A stretch of 64,000 bases of DNA, from NCBI RefSeq assembly GCF_032118995.1, contig NC_092660.1, positions 3,177,501-3,241,500 on the forward strand, given 5' to 3'. This document shows, piece by piece, positions 20,477 through 63,726 of the stretch (position 1 is its first letter; each line of letters opens with the position of its first letter). The notes below the pieces were generated by a model. The model saw nothing but the letters and a program-made list of their open reading frames with translations, did no database searches and had not been told where the DNA came from. This stretch comes from Asterias amurensis. Its lineage: Eukaryota > Echinodermata > Asteroidea > Forcipulatida > Asteriidae. The position numbers and the translations under genes are program-made.

Positions 20477-20593
20477 TAATATTAATAATAATAATTGTGG
20501 CTTCTTATACCGCGCACATGTCCGTCACCCAGTGAAGCTCCTAGCACTGTAACATTATTTCCCAACCTCGCTACCATTGGCAGCGTACCGCCG
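20477..20593 (-). mobile_element. LINE/SINE 3' tail at the edge of the minisatellite
   Basis: An AATAATATTAATAATAATAA tract is followed by GTGGCTTCTTATACCGCGCA, CATGTCCGTCACCCAGTGAA and GCTCC, the reverse complement of the tail at 17487-17562. The 54-bp minisatellite starts right after it. Confidence 0.6.
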
Positions 20594-21619
20594 CTAGCTT
20601 TGCGTAAGTCTATTCTCACTACTACCATTAGCATCCCCTATTGCCCGCTAGCTTTGCGTAAGTCTATTCTCACTACTACCATTAGCATCCCCTATTGCCC
20701 GCTAGCTTTGCGTAAGTCTATTCTCACTACTACCATTAGCATCCCCTATTGCCCGCTAGCTTTGCGTAAGTCTATTCTCACTACTACCATTAGCATCCCC
20801 TATTGCCTGCTAGCTTTGCGTAAGTCTATTCTCACTACCACCATTAGCGCACCGTATCGCCCGCTAGCTTTGCATAAGTCTATTCTCACTTTCACCATTA
20901 GCACCCCGTATTGCCCGCTAGCTTTGCGCAAGTCTATTCTCACTACTACCATTAGCATCCCCTATTGCCCGCTAGCTTTGCGTAAGTCTATTCTCACTAC
21001 TACCATTAGCATCCCCTATTGCCCGCTAGCTTTGCGTAAGTCTATTCTCACTACTACCATTAGCATCCCCTATTGCCCGCTAGCTTTGCGTAAGTCTATT
21101 CTCACTACTACCATTAGCATCCCCTATTGCCCGCTAGCTTTGCGTAAGTCTATTCTCACTACTACCATTAGCATCCCCTATTGCCCGCTAGCTTTGCGTA
21201 AGTCTATTCTCACTACTACCATTAGCATCCCCTATTGCCCGCTAGCTTTGCGTAAGTCTATTCTCACTACTACCATTAGCATCCCCTATTGCCCGCTAGC
21301 TTTGCATAAGTCTGTTCTCACTACTACCATTAGCATCCCCTATTGCCCGCTAGCTTTGCGTAAGTCTATTCTCACTACCACCATTAGCGCACCGTATCGC
21401 CCGCTAGCTTTGCGTAAGTCTATTCTCACTACCACCATTAGCGCACCGTATTGCCCGCAAGCTTTACGTAAGTCTATTCTCACTACCACTATTAGCTCAC
21501 TGTATCGCCCGCTAGCTTTGCGTAAGTCTATTCTCACTACCACCATTAGCACACGGTATCGCCCGCTAGCTTTGCGCAAGTCTATTCTCACTACCACCAT
21601 TAGCTCACTGTATTGCCTG
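20594..21619. repeat. Minisatellite: 19 units of 54 bp
   Basis: The unit begins CTAGCTTTGCGTAAGTCTAT. Nineteen consecutive units span 1,026 bp. Units 1-3 and 7-13 are identical or nearly so; units 4-6 and 14-19 carry substitutions, so the array has homogeneous cores and diverged edges. Because 54 is a multiple of three and the unit lacks stops in this frame, the array lies in a 379-codon plus-strand ORF (18-residue repeat LALRKSILTTTISIPYCP) and also opens a minus-strand frame. I regard both as non-coding: no splice context, no conserved flanks, and the ORF begins inside a retroposon tail. Confidence 0.92.
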
Positions 21620-23091
21620 CTACTCTTGGTTTGATTTCCAGCTTTCATAACCACAGCCAGTCATCAACCAAAATGAAATCAAGAAGAAAAGTGTGCGTTG
21701 CGTTGACGGTGGCATCTTGGACTAACTAGACAAGAACCCGAGTCTGGTTTTGGGCAGTTTAAATAAAAAATAATTGCACCTTAATCCCAAAGAGTGTCGA
21801 TAAAATAAGATTTATTCAGGTTGCTTAGGTAATTACCACAATACTGACCTAAGCTTACATCAACAAAGAAAAATAAAAGTTTGAAGTAGAAAGCTACATA
21901 TTCAAGAAATACTCTTCCCCCCCCCAGTTGCAACTGATGCCCCACTCATTTTTTGCTAAGCAAAGAAATGTGCTAAGCAGCACCTTCTGCTCAACAGCTT
22001 TCATGAAATTTGGGACCATGCAATATTCCACCATATTTCAATCGATTTACCAAGACAGTATGCTGCCACTGAGACTCCCCCAAAACCACAAGAATTTTTG
22101 ACAATTGTCGTCTTTGTTTTTCCTATTTGTAAAAAGAAAAATGTGCATTCATCAACCTAACTAGAGTAACATATAACACAAAACTCAATAAGCGCACGTA
22201 TTCAATTTATAGTGAGCACTGAATGAATAAATTAAAATATATATACTGTACAATCTTAACTTAAAAAAGTGTATGTTCTGCTAAATGAGGTTTGATTAAG
22301 TAAATTACAGTATTGTACAATTATAGATACACAATATATTGCCATTATAGAGCACATTTCCATTTCCACATGCAATTAACTTTTTGCACTATTACTAATT
22401 ACTTAAAAATAATTAAAGAAATTTTCAAAGAGAACTTTTGTAATTTTACGAATTACTTAAAACATTAAAATGAAGTTTTCAAAGATAAAAGTTTGTAATC
22501 AAACTAAAAGTAAATTGAAAAAAAAAGGAGCGTCATTTCAAAGATAATTCAGTTTTCTAAATGTTTAGGAATTGCCATTTTTGTGAAAATAACATGTATT
22601 TCCGAAATGTTGACAACTCCAAATTACAGTTTCCAGTTCACTCACAAACCCAGCTAATGAGTACTTTTCACATTCTAAACTACGTCCGTCGAAAACTAAA
22701 AATCACCACAAATCTATGGTTTTCTGCAGCAATCATACACACACTCCTATCACTCCTCAGAAACACACAAGCCATGGACATTTACTTGGTATACTTTTCA
22801 CTACTTCAGGTCAGTATTAAAAAAGTACTTGAGCAAATTTGTTTTTGACGGCAAAGATATTTAAACCTGTTTGTAACATGTTTGTTTATACCATTTAAAT
22901 GTAATCGTAATTATCGATTAAAAAATCGGGCCCCAACTTCATGGTTTGTAGGAAATATTTCTCAACAAATCCAAGACAAAAACAATACATCATTCGCCAT
23001 AAATCCTTCTATTACGCAGTAACTCATCACTGCTCATTGCACACTAGCCTGTTCTCCATTTCTCCACACTATTCATACCAGAAAACCCTGT
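21620..23091. other. Downstream flank / possible 3' UTR of the SPATA1-like gene
   Basis: AT-rich, without conserved exons. A fragment of the GGGCCCAATTTCATA family lies near 21940-22016. A minus-strand AATAAA candidate (TTTATT at 21811-21816) could end the SPATA1 transcript, but it is 1.3 kb from the stop. Nothing else was recognised. Confidence 0.4.
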
Positions 23092-55674: not shown

Positions 55675-56440
55675 TAATAATAATAATAATAATAATAAGA
55701 CTTGTAATGCGCACATATCCACCCTGCTGGGTGTTCAAGGCGCAGTAAACCAAAACAAAACAAAAACAAAAACACAACACAAAGAAAAACAGACACAACA
55801 AAATTAGTCATTGAAAACCTGTGACATAAGATAAGTTTTGAGAAGAGACTTGAATTTTGCGGTACAAAGACAAGATCGAAGATTAAGTGGTAGAGAGTTC
55901 CAGATGCGTGGCGCGGCTACAGAAAAAGACCTGTCACCCCATGAGTGTCGAGACTTGGGTTCAATGAGGAGAAGCATGGAACTTGATCGAAGATTCCTTG
56001 AAGGAGTGTAAACTTGAAGCAGTTCAGAAATATAGTGGGGAGCCTTGCCATTTAGAGCTTTGTGGACAATGAGCATCAGCTTGAAGATGATTCGTTGAGA
56101 GATAGGGCATGTAGGGAGCCAGTGTAGTTGTTTCAGAATGGGGGTGATAGAACAGGATTTTCTAGACAGTGTCACAATGCGAGCAGCAGTATTTTGGAGC
56201 CGTTGAAGTCGGGAAATCTGGTTGTTAGGAAGACTGTAGAGAAGAGCATTGCCGTTGTCAAGACGAGAAGTAACAAATGCGTGAATGACCTTTTCAGTGG
56301 CACTTTTGTCCAAGTACTTGCGAATCTTACCTATATTCCTGATGTGATATGATGATAAACGAACAATGTTGTTAATGTGTGGCTGAAGTGTCATCGATGA
56401 ATCAAAAATAACCCCTAAGTTCCGAGCTTTCATTGGTTAA
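55675..56440 (-). mobile_element. 5'-truncated CR1/L2-like LINE with intact C-terminal reverse transcriptase ORF
   Basis: Minus strand. A 209-codon frame (56433-55804) contains KARNLGVIFDSSMTLQPHIN, ISRLQRLQNTAARIVTLSRK, LKQLHWLPTCPISQRI and WGDRSFSVAAPRIWNSLP, the C-terminal end typical of CR1/L2/jockey-type LINE polymerases. The palm motif (YxDD) lies upstream of what is kept. The 3' UTR (55680-55803) ends in (TAA)n at 55677-55697, as for this LINE group. The copy is truncated at about 56440. The frame is open throughout, suggesting a fairly recent insertion. Confidence 0.85.
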
Positions 56441-59146: not shown

Positions 59147-59218
59147 GGCTAGATAGCTCAGTTGGTAGAGTGCTAGCATGTTAATCCGGAGGTCATTGGT
59201 TCGAATCCCACTCTAGTC
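59147..59218 (+). tRNA. tRNA-Asn(GTT)-like sequence, probably a pseudo-tRNA or SINE head
   Basis: GGCTAGA at 59147 pairs with TCTAGTC ending at 59218 (acceptor stem); the D arm is GCTCAGTTGGTAGAGT; the anticodon GTT falls at 59180-59182 after T33; the T loop is TTCGAAT. The anticodon stem and T stem each have two mismatched pairs, so a working tRNA is doubtful. The similar A- and B-box layout is also typical of SINE heads. Confidence 0.5.
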
Positions 59219-59485
59219 AATTCTTTGTTCAACCCAAATATCATTTAAAAAATTTACCCAGTCATTTTCCCTTGTGGTTTATATTGGTAATATTTTTAAA
59301 GCGTATCGATAGTGTATCGGAGGAAAAATAGTGTGCCGGCATTTTTCGATAGCGTGTCGGCCCGGTACGCTATTTAATGCCTGGCTAGAACGCTGCATGC
59401 CTGTTTTAAAAAGCCCATGAAAGAACAAGTAGCTACCCTATTATTCCCTTACTCGTTCTTGACATGTTTTGTCATCAGCTTCCAG

Positions 59486-59597
59486 ATCAATTAATGCAGA
59501 CAATGATGATGGCTGGCTGTCTATCGCACTCGGTAGAGGAGTGTCAATCAAACAACTCGCAGCGTGGCTAGCAATATACGACAGCTCACATCCAAAG
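59486..59597 (+). pseudogene. Exon-like cassette, copy 1 (112 bp)
   Basis: Bounded by an acceptor-like TTCCAG and a donor-like GGTACG. One frame reads SINADNDDGWLSIALGRGVS, then IKQLAAWLAIYDSSHPK. Unrecognised family. Four related cassettes follow in the same orientation. No promoter, start or terminal exon was found, so I treat it as a gene fragment. Confidence 0.4.
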
Positions 59598-59646
59598 GTA
59601 CGAAAAAAATGATTGACATTGAACCATGAGTAATGTTTTTAGTATT

Positions 59647-60044
59647 GCAGCTTAAGCCCCTTTCACACGAGAGCAATTTAGCAAGGGTCCCTTGCTAAAT
59701 TGTAGCAAGGTTGTAAGATTTTACAAAATGCGCCTCGTGTGAAAGGACAATAATTTTTGGAGTGTCCAGGGTCCCTTGTCAAATCTTGTCCAACAATGCT
59801 ACATTTTGTCAGAGGTCCGGACCTACGACAAAATCTTACACTAGCGGGAGTTTTGACCAAGGACGTGGGCTACATCATTATGTGCAAGGAACCCTTGTTT
59901 ATTGAACGACGTCCTAGGTGAAAATGCCCATACAGTGCATGCTATTGTGGTCGCTATCTTGTCCAACTAAAGTGATCAGGATTATCAATTCATCATATCA
60001 CTCGCATGTCGCACAAGGGTTGTTAGTTTTTTAACTTTGCAGTG
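59647..60044. mobile_element. MITE with 'CCCCTTTCACACGAGAG' end, truncated
   Basis: Starts TTAAGCCCCTTTCACACGAG; the matching right end (GTGTGAAAAAGGGCTT) is only in the copy at 62175-62681. The SINE at 60045 begins where it breaks off. A shorter relative is at 61133-61340. Confidence 0.65.
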
Positions 60045-60335
60045 CGTCTCAAAGCACTTCAAACATTATTACCCTTGGTCACTGGGCCTTAATTAATTCC
60101 TTAAACCAACTCAGCTCCCTGGTGGGGAGTATGCAGCCTGTGAAACATTAAAATGCGCTATCGGCTAAATCAGTCAAAAGAACCATCTCTGCCCTCACAG
60201 GTACCCATTTACCCCTGGGTGGAGAGAAGCAATTAGAGTTAAGTGTCACGACAAGGATTGGAACCCACACTCTGCTGAATAGAAGCATCAGAGCTCGAGT
60301 TCGGTGCTCTTAATCTCTCGGCCACGACACCCTAC
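60045..60335 (-). mobile_element. tRNA-headed SINE, best copy
   Basis: Minus strand: the head near 60335 reads GTGTCGTGGCCGAGAGATTA and has a box-B-like GGTTCCAATCC; the body passes through GGTAAATGGGTACCTGTGAG; the tail lies near 60060 (CCAGTGACCAAGGGTAATAA). The GTGGCCGAG...TTAAGAGC start resembles a tRNA-Ser/Leu head. Confidence 0.75.
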
Positions 60336-60390
60336 TCACTGAATGTTTTAATTTGTTCTCATTCTTGCATGTTTTGTCATCAACTTACAG

Positions 60391-60518
60391 ATCAATTAAT
60401 GCAGACAGAGCGTCAGATCTTCAATCATGATGGCTGGTTGTCCATCGCACTCAGCAGAGGAGTGTCAATCAAACAACTCGCAGAGTGGCCAGGAAACTAT
60501 CACAGCTCACATCCAAAG
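60391..60518 (+). pseudogene. Exon-like cassette, copy 2 (128 bp)
   Basis: ACTTACAG acceptor, CCAAAG then GTACGA donor. The frame for the shared 3' part reads HDGWLSIALSRGVSIKQLAE, then WPGNYHSSHPK. The upstream part is in another frame relative to copies 1 and 4, so 5' phase is not conserved. Family not recognised. Confidence 0.4.
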
Positions 60519-60614
60519 GTACGAAAAAATGATTAAGATTGAACGCTGAGTAATGTTTTTAGTATTGCAGCTTAATGCTGCTCTCACACTGTGGTGAATA
60601 TGAATATTTGAGGG

Positions 60615-60775
60615 CGTCTCAAAGCACTTCTAACATTATTACTCCTGGTCACTGGGCCTTAATTCATTCCTTAAACCAACTCAGCTCCCTGGTGGGGAGT
60701 ATACCTCCTGTGCAACTTTAAAATGGGCTATCGGTGCTCTTACCCACTCGGCCACGACACCCTACTCACTAAATG
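60615..60775 (-). mobile_element. Internally deleted tRNA-headed SINE
   Basis: Shares GGGCGTCTCAAAGCACTTCT, CTGGTCACTGGGCCTTAATT and TACCCACTCGGCCACGACAC with 60045-60335 but lacks the central body. Confidence 0.65.
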
Positions 60776-60952
60776 TTTAAACTTTGAGCGTCGCTGAGTG
60801 ACGGATACGAGCGCTTTATAAGAAGTGAAGTTTAATGCCTGCGGTCTTAAACCAGCCGATATTGGACAATTCTGCATGACTCCATGCGTAGTTTACTCAC
60901 TTAATGTTTAAATGTGTACTCATTCTTGACATGTTTTGTCATCAACTTACAG

Positions 60953-61080
60953 ATCAATTAACCCAGACAGAGCATCAGATCTTCAGTCATGATGGTTGGT
61001 TGTCCATCACACTCGGCAGAGGAGTGTCAATCAAACAACTCGCAGAGTGGCCAGGAATCTATCACAGCTCACATCCAAAG
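60953..61080 (+). pseudogene. Exon-like cassette, copy 3 (128 bp)
   Basis: Same borders and length as copy 2. Reads QTEHQIFSHDGWLSITLGRG, then VSIKQLAEWPGIYHSSHPK. Open across the whole cassette in this frame. Confidence 0.4.
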
Positions 61081-61132
61081 GTACGAAAAAACTTATTGAC
61101 ATTGAACCATGAGTAATGTTTTTAGTATTGCA

Positions 61133-61340
61133 GCTTAAGCCCCTTTCACACGAGAGCAATTTAGCAAGGGTCCCTTGCTAAATTGTAGCAAGGTTGTAAG
61201 ATTTTACAAAATGCACCTCGTGTGAAAGGACAATAATTTGTTTGAGTGTCCAGGGTCCCTTGTCAAATCTTGTCCAACAATGCTACATTTTGTCAGAGGT
61301 CCGGACCTACGACAAAATCTTACACTAGCGGAAGTTTTGA
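61133..61340. mobile_element. MITE with 'CCCCTTTCACACGAGAG' end, truncated copy
   Basis: Matches 59647-59845 nearly base for base, then departs after AGCGGAAGTTTTGAC into unrelated GC-richer sequence (61345-61770) that contains several GGATCG and CGATCC inverted motifs. Confidence 0.65.
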
Positions 61341-61998
61341 CTTTTGACTTGCTTGCTTGTTTAACACACCGATCGTAATCGTTTTGCTGTGTTGTGACGA
61401 CTACTATGTGATTTCGTAAGCTGACTTATGACGAATGGCATCGCGCTGCACAATGTTTTGTTACAATACGAAGGGAAAAAAATTGATCCACAAGTTAGGG
61501 AGTGCTCAAAAGTCGGAACGGTAGGAACGTTCTTTTTGGATCGCAAGAGTATCCCCGCCGCTTTACTTGGACCGGTCCTTTGGACCGCCAGAGCGATCTT
61601 TTGGATCGTTCCAAATGCGTGACCGCGTCCAATCTCATGTTAGAACGTTCCTAATGTCATGATGTTGCGATCCTGCGGGCATATGCCCGCGATCCAATGG
61701 GTCGCGGGCATATGCCCGCAGGAACGTTCTTTTGCGCTAGGAACGTGCCCGACTTTTGAGACGCTCCCTTAATACAGAGAAATGGCATTAAAAATAAATA
61801 AAAGGTTAGATTTTTAAAGCGTATCGATTGCGTATCGGAGGAAAAATAGTGAGTTGGTATTTTTTGATAGCGTGTCGGCCCGGCACGCTATTAAATGCCT
61901 GGCTAGAATGCTGCATACCTGTTTTAAACACCCATGAAAGAACTAGTAGCTAACCTATTATTCCTTTACTCATTCTTGACATGTTTTGTCATCAACAG

Positions 61999-62125
61999 AT
62001 CAATTAATGCAGACAGAGTGTCAGATCTTCAAAATGATGGCTGGCTGCCCATCGCACTCAGCAGAGGAGTGTCAATCAAACAACTCACTGAGTGGCCAGG
62101 AAACTATCACAGCTCACATCCAAAG
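61999..62125 (+). pseudogene. Exon-like cassette, copy 4 (127 bp)
   Basis: Acceptor ATCAACAG (a five-base deletion relative to the other copies) and GGTACG donor. One frame is open from end to end: SINADRVSDLQNDGWLPIAL, then SRGVSIKQLTEWPGNYHSSH. This and copy 1 share the 5' phase. Confidence 0.4.
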
Positions 62126-62174
62126 GTACGAAAAAATGATTAAGATTGAACCATGAGTAATGTTTTTAGTATTG

Positions 62175-62681
62175 CAGCTTAAGCCCCTTTCACACGAGAG
62201 CAATTTAGCTAGGGTCCCTTGCTAAATTGTAGCATGGTTGTAAGATTTTACAAAATGCACCGTGTGTGAAAGGACAATAATTTTTGGAGTGACCAGGGTC
62301 CCTTATCAAATCTTATCCAACAATGCTACATTTTGTCAGAGGTCCGGACCTGCGACAAAATCTTACACTAGCAGAAGTTTTGACCAAGGACGTGGGCTAC
62401 ATCATCATGTGAAAGGAACCCTTGTTTATTGAACGACGTCCTAGATGAAAATGCCCATACAGTGCATGCTATTGTGGGTGCTATCTTGTCCAACTAAGGT
62501 GATCAGGATTACCAATTCATCATATCACTCTCATGTCGCACAAGGGTTGTTAGTTTTTTTAATTTTGCAGTATGAAAACTCACAAAATCAGTCACACACG
62601 ATGATAACAAATAAACAATCCACGCTCGTAATTTTTAAGCAAGGGACCCTGGCTACATTTTGGCTGTGTGAAAAAGGGCTT
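62175..62681. mobile_element. MITE with 'CCCCTTTCACACGAGAG' ends, full-length
   Basis: Left TTAAGCCCCTTTCACACGAG, right GGCTGTGTGAAAAAGGGCTT. Left subterminal CTAGGGTCCCTTGCTAAATT is mirrored by AAGCAAGGGACCCTGGCTAC at about 62637. About 505 bp, no coding capacity. Confidence 0.7.
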
Positions 62682-62719
62682 GAATGCTGCTCTCACACTG
62701 TGTAGATTATGAACATTTG

Positions 62720-62962
62720 AGGGCGTCTCAAAGCACTTCAAACATTATAACCCCTGGTCACTGGGCCTTAATTAATTCCTTAAACCAACTCAGCTCCCTG
62801 GTGGGGAGTATGCAGCCTGTGCAACATTAAAATGCGCTATCGGCTAAATCAGTCAAAAGAACCATCTCTGCCCTCACAGGTACCTATTTACCCCTGGGTG
62901 GAGAGAAGCAATTATAGTTAAGCTATCGGTGCTCTTACCCGCTCGGCCAAGACACCCTACTC
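62720..62962 (-). mobile_element. tRNA-headed SINE with internal deletion
   Basis: Carries the tail, the AACCATCTCTGCCCTCACAG and AGGTACCTATTTACCCCTGG body, and CCGCTCGGCCAAGACACC; box B is deleted after AATTATAGTTAAG. Confidence 0.65.
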
Positions 62963-63016
62963 ACTAAATGTTTAAACTTGTACTCATTCTTGACATGTTT
63001 TGTCTTCAATTTACAG

Positions 63017-63158
63017 ATCAATGAACACAGACAGAACTACAGATCTTTAATCACGATGGCTGGCTGTCTATCGCACTCAGCAGAGATGTATCAATCTATA
63101 AATGTCAAAGCATTGCAGAGTGGCCAGCAATCTGCTATATGATATCTCACATCTAAAG
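63017..63158 (+). pseudogene. Exon-like cassette, copy 5 (142 bp, degenerate)
   Basis: TTTACAG acceptor and AAGGTACG donor borders are kept. The interior has an insertion and substitutions (GCAGAGATGTATCAATCTAT), and no single frame matches the others throughout. Confidence 0.4.
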
Positions 63159-63206
63159 GTACGGGAAAATGATTGAAATTGAAAATAGTTTTTAGTAAGG
63201 CAGCTT

Positions 63207-63410
63207 AAGGGCCTTGTCACTTGAGGCAACTTGTAGGCAACCAGTTGCAGGCAACCAGTTGCAGTGTGTGCTACAGGACCACTTTGATAGCACACAAGTC
63301 ATTTTTCAAACATTGTCTTCAATCCACATTTGAAATGTGAGTGGCTTTTTTGGGGGGAGTTTGCCTGGAACTGGTTGCCCGTAAGTTGCCTCTTGTGACA
63401 TGGCCCTTAG
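63207..63410. mobile_element. MITE with 'AAGGGCCTTGTCACTTGAGG' ends
   Basis: Left TTAAGGGCCTTGTCACTTGA with GGCAACTTG; right AAGTTGCCTCTTGTGACATG with GCCCTTA. The left arm contains a tandem AGGCAACCAGTTGC, and the right arm holds GGAACTGGTTGCCC. About 200 bp. Confidence 0.7.
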
Positions 63411-63726
63411 GCTGAACGTCGCTCTTGAGGGGGCACAACAATTTTCCTCTGGTAATGGGCACTTCTATGAGTCAAATGTTAAATTGTATTGGAACCTTGC
63501 AGAGGGCACCACATCAAAAGCACAGGGCACCACTTCAAGGCCTGCAACTTACTGTGTGAAAATAAATGCTCAATATTCAGAACAATCCCTCTTTTGTGAG
63601 AGATGTGTATACCCATCAAATGTGTTTCAGGTCCTCAGTGTCGAGTCTTAGTCAAAATTTCTATTCTTGTTTGCATCTTTTGCATAAGTGGTTCTAACAT
63701 GCCATGAGCAAGCAGTCAAGTACACT

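What the first reader, a model, noticed from the sequence alone, without database searches (positions are those of the whole stretch)
59486..63158. Five tandem copies of an unrecognised exon-like cassette with splice borders
A 112-142 bp segment encoding about DGWLSIALSRGVSIKQLAEWPG recurs five times over 3.7 kb, always with an acceptor-like start and GGTACG donor, while the spacers are filled with changing MITEs and SINEs. Copies 2-4 keep long open frames. Lengths are not multiples of three, so copies cannot be spliced in series in one frame; if expressed they would have to be alternatives. The GWLSIAL...IKQLAEW pattern is faintly like a death-fold helix, but I cannot assign it.
Basis: partly seen in the sequence, partly recalled or inferred. 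Interest (0 to 1): 0.7.

Follow-up and report, generated by a model that had tools for sequence, protein, structure and literature searches.

The report
Noncoding exon-like repeat in tandem array
Five tandem copies of an exon-like DNA cassette are real, but they belong to an old family spread over dozens of duplicated places in this animal's genome that keeps splice-like ends without keeping a protein reading frame, so they look like noncoding or decayed exons rather than a set of alternative protein exons.

Summary
Five cassettes of 112, 128, 128, 127 and 142 bp lie at 59486-63158, each with an AG start and a GGTACG end.

The interpretation mostly fails. The cassette (c1) has about 65 recognisable copies in the sequence fetched from the window's own genome. 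In 43 copies with both borders, lengths spread over the three phases (19/16/8) and 12 have an open frame of any kind. The "DGWLSIAL" reading depends on a 4-nt TGGC repeat that most older copies lack and on loss of 9 nt holding an in-frame TGA.

What remains is gene-like. A second exon-like unit (c2) lies downstream. Of 36 clusters, 18 hold both units; in 17 of 18 all units share a strand and every c1 precedes every c2; the other is two adjacent opposite-strand loci. The window's array is one such locus, with c2 copies 8.5-20 kb beyond it. GT is kept in 50 of 50 covered copies, AG in 55 of 58, while the exon body changes as fast as its upstream flank.

Best reading: decayed or noncoding exons of a segmentally duplicated locus, enlarged by tandem duplication and seeded with SINEs and MITEs. 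Expression is untested.

The parts
59486..59597 (+). c1 cassette copy 1 (112 bp; 16-nt internal gap relative to copy 2)
60391..60518 (+). c1 cassette copy 2 (128 bp; open in the DGWLSIAL frame)
60953..61080 (+). c1 cassette copy 3 (128 bp; open in the same frame)
61999..62125 (+). c1 cassette copy 4 (127 bp; a 1-nt gap puts the peptide in another phase relative to the acceptor; acceptor reads ATCAACAG, without the CTTA of copies 2 and 3)
63017..63158 (+). c1 cassette copy 5 (142 bp; keeps the 9-nt segment missing in copies 1-4; its best relatives in the fetched sequence are on other contigs)
59286..59478 (+). upstream segment of copy 1, repeated 90% identical before copy 4 (61804-61994)
59652..60043 (.). 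MITE-like insertion after copy 1; relatives at 61135-61341 (partial) and 62179-62690 (long form between TTAA and TTGA)
   Evidence: an apparent empty site CAGC-TTAA-TGCTGC after copy 2 is read; the name MITE is recalled
60036..60345 (-). tRNA-type SINE in reverse orientation upstream of copy 2; relatives at 60594-60783 and 62705-62978
   Evidence: the tRNA-like head is judged by eye and the name SINE is recalled
63205..63415 (.). second MITE-like element after copy 5, 54-nt inverted repeats 85% complementary

Best explanation
The cassette is one unit (c1) of an old, dispersed, gene-like locus family that carries at least two exon-like units in fixed order: c1 copies, then c2 copies. The locus reached many places on 11 contigs, most likely by segmental duplication. 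Inside loci the c1 unit, with its flanking intron-like DNA and a resident SINE, was multiplied in tandem; this gives five copies here, with MITE-like elements in the spacers. The c1 cassettes do not encode a conserved peptide. Splice-type borders are retained, so if these loci are transcribed, c1 would be spliced as a noncoding or frame-breaking exon; otherwise it is exon debris. Shown: copy number, arrangement, lack of a shared frame in c1, retention of borders where readable. Inferred: that the units are or were exons, how they spread, and that no protein is made through c1.
For: 69 profile matches in the fetched sequence, 66 rows after dropping 3 seen twice, about 65 copies because two adjacent rows of L055 look like one split copy. 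67 c1 and 40 c2 hits form 36 clusters on 11 contigs; 18 hold both; 17 of 18 have one strand and the order c1 then c2. The same c1+SINE unit in arrays on C8, C10, C11 and C13. No shared frame: lengths 19/16/8 over the phases, 12 of 43 open in any frame. GT kept 50 of 50, AG 55 of 58 where covered. On a tree of 44 copies GT has 0 changes, as low as only 5 of 274 neighbouring column pairs; the exon body (3.13 changes per column) matches the upstream flank (3.21).
Against: AG is not special: 39 of 274 column pairs are as low. Rows that do not reach a border were not counted (8 of 66 for AG, 16 of 66 for GT), and some are real losses: L059 has no GT there and several C17/C20 copies have another 3' half. 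One frame is open in 9 of 43 c1 copies against 3.6 from shuffles. c2 looks more coding-like: exon columns 0.91-0.93 conserved against flanks 0.84 and 0.81, 4 of 9 copies with both borders are 144 nt, 6 of 9 are open in one frame and 8 of 9 in some frame, though pN/pS in that open frame is 0.97. No RNA data; first exons and promoters were not found.
Confidence: 0.6

Rival explanations
1. The loci are a live family of long noncoding RNA genes whose tandem exon arrays are spliced, with selection on splice signals and not on exon sequence.
For: GT kept 50 of 50 covered copies, 0 tree changes; c1-before-c2 at 17 of 18 two-unit clusters; exon body changes like the upstream flank.
Against: No expression data; AG lost in 3 of 58 covered copies and further losses among uncovered ones; no folding signal in 5 copies (z from -1.13 to 0.59); no Rfam match on c1 or c2 in 6 loci searched.
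Confidence: 0.25
2. Mutually exclusive or alternative protein-coding exons of one gene.
For: Copies 2-4 have long open frames; two C8 copies at 298-299 kb share the same open reading as copies 2 and 3; one frame is open in 9 of 43 copies against 3.6 expected.
Against: 12 of 43 open in any frame; the peptide's phase differs between copies 1/4 and 2/3; pN/pS 0.71 in that frame; no PDB or Pfam match.
Confidence: 0.04
3. A plain repetitive element (transposon or satellite) with no link to any gene; the splice-like borders are accidental.
For: High copy number, tandem units, nested SINEs and MITEs; no shared frame; acceptor not unusually conserved.
Against: c1 and c2 stay in one order and strand at separate loci with about 0.4 to 11 kb between the nearest c1 and c2 (positions), which a single short mobile unit would not give; two different units both have exon-type borders.
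Confidence: 0.15

Closest known systems
Tandemly duplicated exon arrays (mutually exclusive exons, e.g. Dscam; recalled)
   Same: Tandem copies of a short exon-like unit with splice-type borders.
   Different: No common frame or length phase in c1; stops or frameshifts in most copies; dispersed over 36 clusters.
Segmental duplications carrying pseudogene or noncoding exons (recalled)
   Same: Collinear units at loci on many contigs, some recent (C8 5.50 Mb vs C8 4.68 Mb, long pieces 85-90% identical; three C11 copies about 78 kb apart).
   Different: Here one exon-like unit is further multiplied in tandem together with a resident SINE.
LINE exonisation (recalled)
   Same: Four c2-type units of the C13 locus, beyond the window, hold a piece of a LINE-like C-terminus; for one of them 108-114 bp are 86-88% identical to two such genomic copies.
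   Different: c1 has no match to those two LINE-like ends.

Membership tests
Mutually exclusive / alternative coding exon array | Copies share one reading frame and compatible phase | tested here: not met
   lengths mod 3 are 19/16/8 in 43 copies; 12 of 43 open in any frame
Mutually exclusive / alternative coding exon array | Purifying selection on the encoded peptide | tested here: not met
   pN/pS 0.71 in the peptide frame over copies 2-4; another frame, with a stop, scores 0.23; few changes, so a weak test
Mutually exclusive / alternative coding exon array | Spliced one at a time between shared exons | not testable with these tools
   no RNA data
Death-fold domain | Sequence match to a death-fold family | tested here: not met
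   copy 2 peptide: PDB, none at E up to 10; Pfam, none; no fold was predicted
Gene-like duplicated locus family | Units in the same order and strand at separate loci | tested here: met
   17 of 18 two-unit clusters
Gene-like duplicated locus family | Splice borders constrained relative to surroundings | tested here: inconclusive
   donor yes (5 of 274 column pairs as low), acceptor no (39 of 274)
Long noncoding RNA gene family | Transcribed and spliced | not testable with these tools
   no RNA data

The most novel reading that the evidence does not exclude
A large family (36 clusters) of noncoding, multi-exon transcription units in a probable sea star, in which an internal exon with no shared frame is repeatedly multiplied in tandem while its splice donor stays under selection. 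In window copies 1-4 the loss of 9 nt removed an in-frame stop, so a fresh peptide (DGWLSIALSRGVSIKQLAEWPG) may be emerging from noncoding exons.
Probability: 0.2. Interest if true: 0.6.

Novelty: new member of a known kind. Interest (0 to 1): 0.36.

Why it matters
It shows exon-like arrays persisting at dozens of loci with splice-type ends but no shared frame: a trap for gene prediction, and a natural series for asking whether splice signals alone are kept in noncoding exons. If expressed, it would be an unusually large, countable noncoding gene family with ongoing exon multiplication.

Tried and rejected
Known domain: no match worth keeping (DUF1272, AA_permease_N and DUF3470 score below their cut-offs). 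Structured RNA: no signal in 5 copies folded; Rfam on 6 loci gave 9 rows, one (a tRNA) above its gathering score, none on c1 or c2. An intact coding parent of c1: a peptide read from the C18 copy across its frame slip gave 17 matches; one, C7:3780614, runs through 37 codons without a stop because it lacks 4 nt, but that frame has two stops at the start of its exon. A seemingly conserved 'third exon' on C8 (98.75% protein identity) is plain high DNA identity of a recent duplication. Upstream partner exons: 20 upstream stretches compared gave scattered shared pieces that I could not sort from repeats. LINE origin of c1: no match to two LINE-like ends. Species: genome size is near that of Asterias amurensis (491.53 Mb, 22 chromosomes, PMC10625585, passages seen; the held genome is 491.51 Mb in 23 contigs), not proven. 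Its candidate sex region (chromosome 10, 7-12 Mb; PMC11757944, passages seen) is away from the C10 locus if numbering agrees. Literature: search listings showed nothing describing this family; these searches were few and narrow.

Limits of the counts. One search used 67 c1 hits, leaving out two short fragments (C8:6696028, C20:5317238) and hits that repeat; the 40 c2 hits are those scored of 57 candidates; the tools call such counts lower bounds. Neither the C18 copy nor the copies in L085 are among the 66 rows. Shuffles keep base content only and were made per frame, not for 'any frame'. In one search the cassette slices start up to two bases off and some run over the end; the peptide's frame is 'frame 1' there. 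One search used a wrong donor column and was replaced. One search prints AG per column (56 of 58 each); the joint count is 55 of 58.

Full report
Observation. The five cassettes are present as described: 59486-59597, 60391-60518, 60953-61080, 61999-62125 and 63017-63158, with CAG before and GTACG after each. The repeat finder reports a five-copy family there, and a profile built from genome copies finds these five as the only long matches in the 64-kb window, one 15.8-bit flank fragment besides, and nothing in the reversed sequence. Copies 1-4 are 87-93% alike; copy 5 is 79-83% like them and up to 86% like copies on other contigs.

Genome-wide copies. The window is C13:3177501-3241500 of a 491.5-Mb genome in 23 contigs. 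A DNA search with copy 2 gives 41 matches, most in tandem clusters on C8, others on C10, C11, C13, C17 and C20. A search with an older type of copy beside one C8 cluster gives 43 matches, partly new ones on C4, C7, C11, C12, C13, C18 and C20. A profile search over part of the fetched sequence gives 69 matches, 66 rows after dropping 3 seen twice, about 65 copies.

Array structure. In arrays on C8, C10, C11 and C13 the basic unit is the same: cassette, then a reverse-oriented tRNA-type SINE, then the next cassette. The variable spacers are this unit with insertions or losses. After copy 2 the sequence CAGC-TTAA-TGCTGCTCTCACACTG looks like an empty site; after copy 4 a MITE-like element sits there between TTAA and TTGA (read). 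Copies 1 and 4 share an upstream segment of about 190 bp. So blocks carrying insertions were themselves duplicated.

No shared frame in c1. Of 43 copies with both AG and GT, lengths range from 109 to 151 and fall 19/16/8 over the phases; 12 have an open frame of any kind; by frame 1, 4 and 9 are open against 3.5, 3.7 and 3.6 from base-content shuffles. Four of the 9 are window copies 2 and 3 and two C8 copies with the same peptide. The older copies aligned lack the TGGC repeat that gives 'DGWLS' (the C18 copy, does read GWLS by another small change), and the wider family has TGTTGAAGC, with an in-frame TGA, where copies 1-4 have nothing. Between copies 2, 3 and 4 the summed changes give pN/pS 0.71 in the peptide frame and 0.72 and 0.23 in the others, the last being a frame with a stop; with so few changes this shows only that no coding signal is visible. 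The copy-2 peptide has no PDB or Pfam match.

A second unit in fixed order. Another exon-like unit, c2 (a 144-nt form on C11 reads IKIQTESVGSHKESASITGRDAQTFWIKISTASVEPVNALSSQSTLLQ), lies near the clusters. With 67 c1 and 40 c2 hits clustered at 20 kb there are 36 clusters on 11 contigs; 18 have both units, and 17 of 18 have one strand and every c1 before every c2; the other is two adjacent loci on opposite strands. Of the 18 clusters with one unit only, 14 have c1 and 4 have c2. The window's locus is among the 17: c2 units at C13:3249202, 3250905, 3252591, 3259079 and 3260232, beyond the window. The c2 profile also matches the start of two window cassettes weakly (61979-62028 and 60350-60420, 20.6 and 17.2 bits), so c1 and c2 may share a remote origin. 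A c2 type whose second half is other sequence was aligned from 9 places; 8 are followed by a minisatellite of about 28 bp, the C18 one not. Four C13 c2-type units hold a piece of a LINE-like C-terminus.

Borders. Where the rows reach them, GT is kept 50 of 50 and AG 55 of 58; rows that stop short (16 and 8 of 66) were not counted and include real losses. Mean column identity is 0.865 in the exon and 0.881 in 40 bp upstream. On a tree of 44 copies the GT pair has no change, as low as 5 of 274 neighbouring pairs; AG has 2, as low as 39 of 274; the exon averages 3.13 changes per column, the upstream flank 3.21, the downstream flank 4.37, and the stretch -20 to -3 only 2.12, so the slowest part lies just outside the exon. 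c2 keeps AG in 18 of 18 and GT in 14 of 14 covered rows of 23, its exon is more conserved (0.91-0.93) than its flanks (0.84, 0.81), and 8 of 9 copies with both borders are open in some frame, 6 in the same one; in the four 144-nt copies pN/pS is 0.97 in that open frame and 0.55 and 0.79 in the others. So c2 may once have been coding; c1 shows no such sign.

Reading. Order and strand across separate loci argue for a duplicated transcription-unit-like locus rather than a mobile repeat; lack of a shared frame argues against coding in c1; donor retention hints at, but does not prove, splicing. I therefore take c1 as a noncoding or decayed exon multiplied in tandem inside a segmentally duplicated locus family. 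Whether it is transcribed cannot be told here.

Noticed in passing
59147-59219: tRNA-Asn (GTT) predicted by ARAGORN and matched by Rfam above its gathering score, just upstream of copy 1; a gene or a SINE head.
   Followed up: partly
L010:9336-9899 (C13, beyond the window): Reverse-strand open frame with a DUF4371 match, looking like a hAT-type transposase (recalled), between the c1 array and the c2 units of the locus.
   Followed up: partly
L078:1820-2010 and three similar places on C13: c2-type units holding a piece of a LINE-like C-terminus and then duplicated; similar peptide matches near C8:296956, C8:6700019 and C12:8650620.
   Followed up: partly
C11:10188126, 10266145, 10344122: Three c1 copies about 78 kb apart, suggesting a large tandem segmental duplication.
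   Followed up: no
20495-21634: 379-aa open frame made of a repeated unit (ALRKSILTTTISIPYCPL), probably a minisatellite.
   Followed up: no
55807-56436 (-): 210-aa open frame resembling a LINE C-terminus by eye (recalled); no Pfam match at E up to 0.001.
   Followed up: partly
C7:3780614-3780724 (L085): A c1-type copy whose two halves read through 37 codons without a stop because it lacks 4 nt, with two stops at the start of the exon in that frame.
   Followed up: partly
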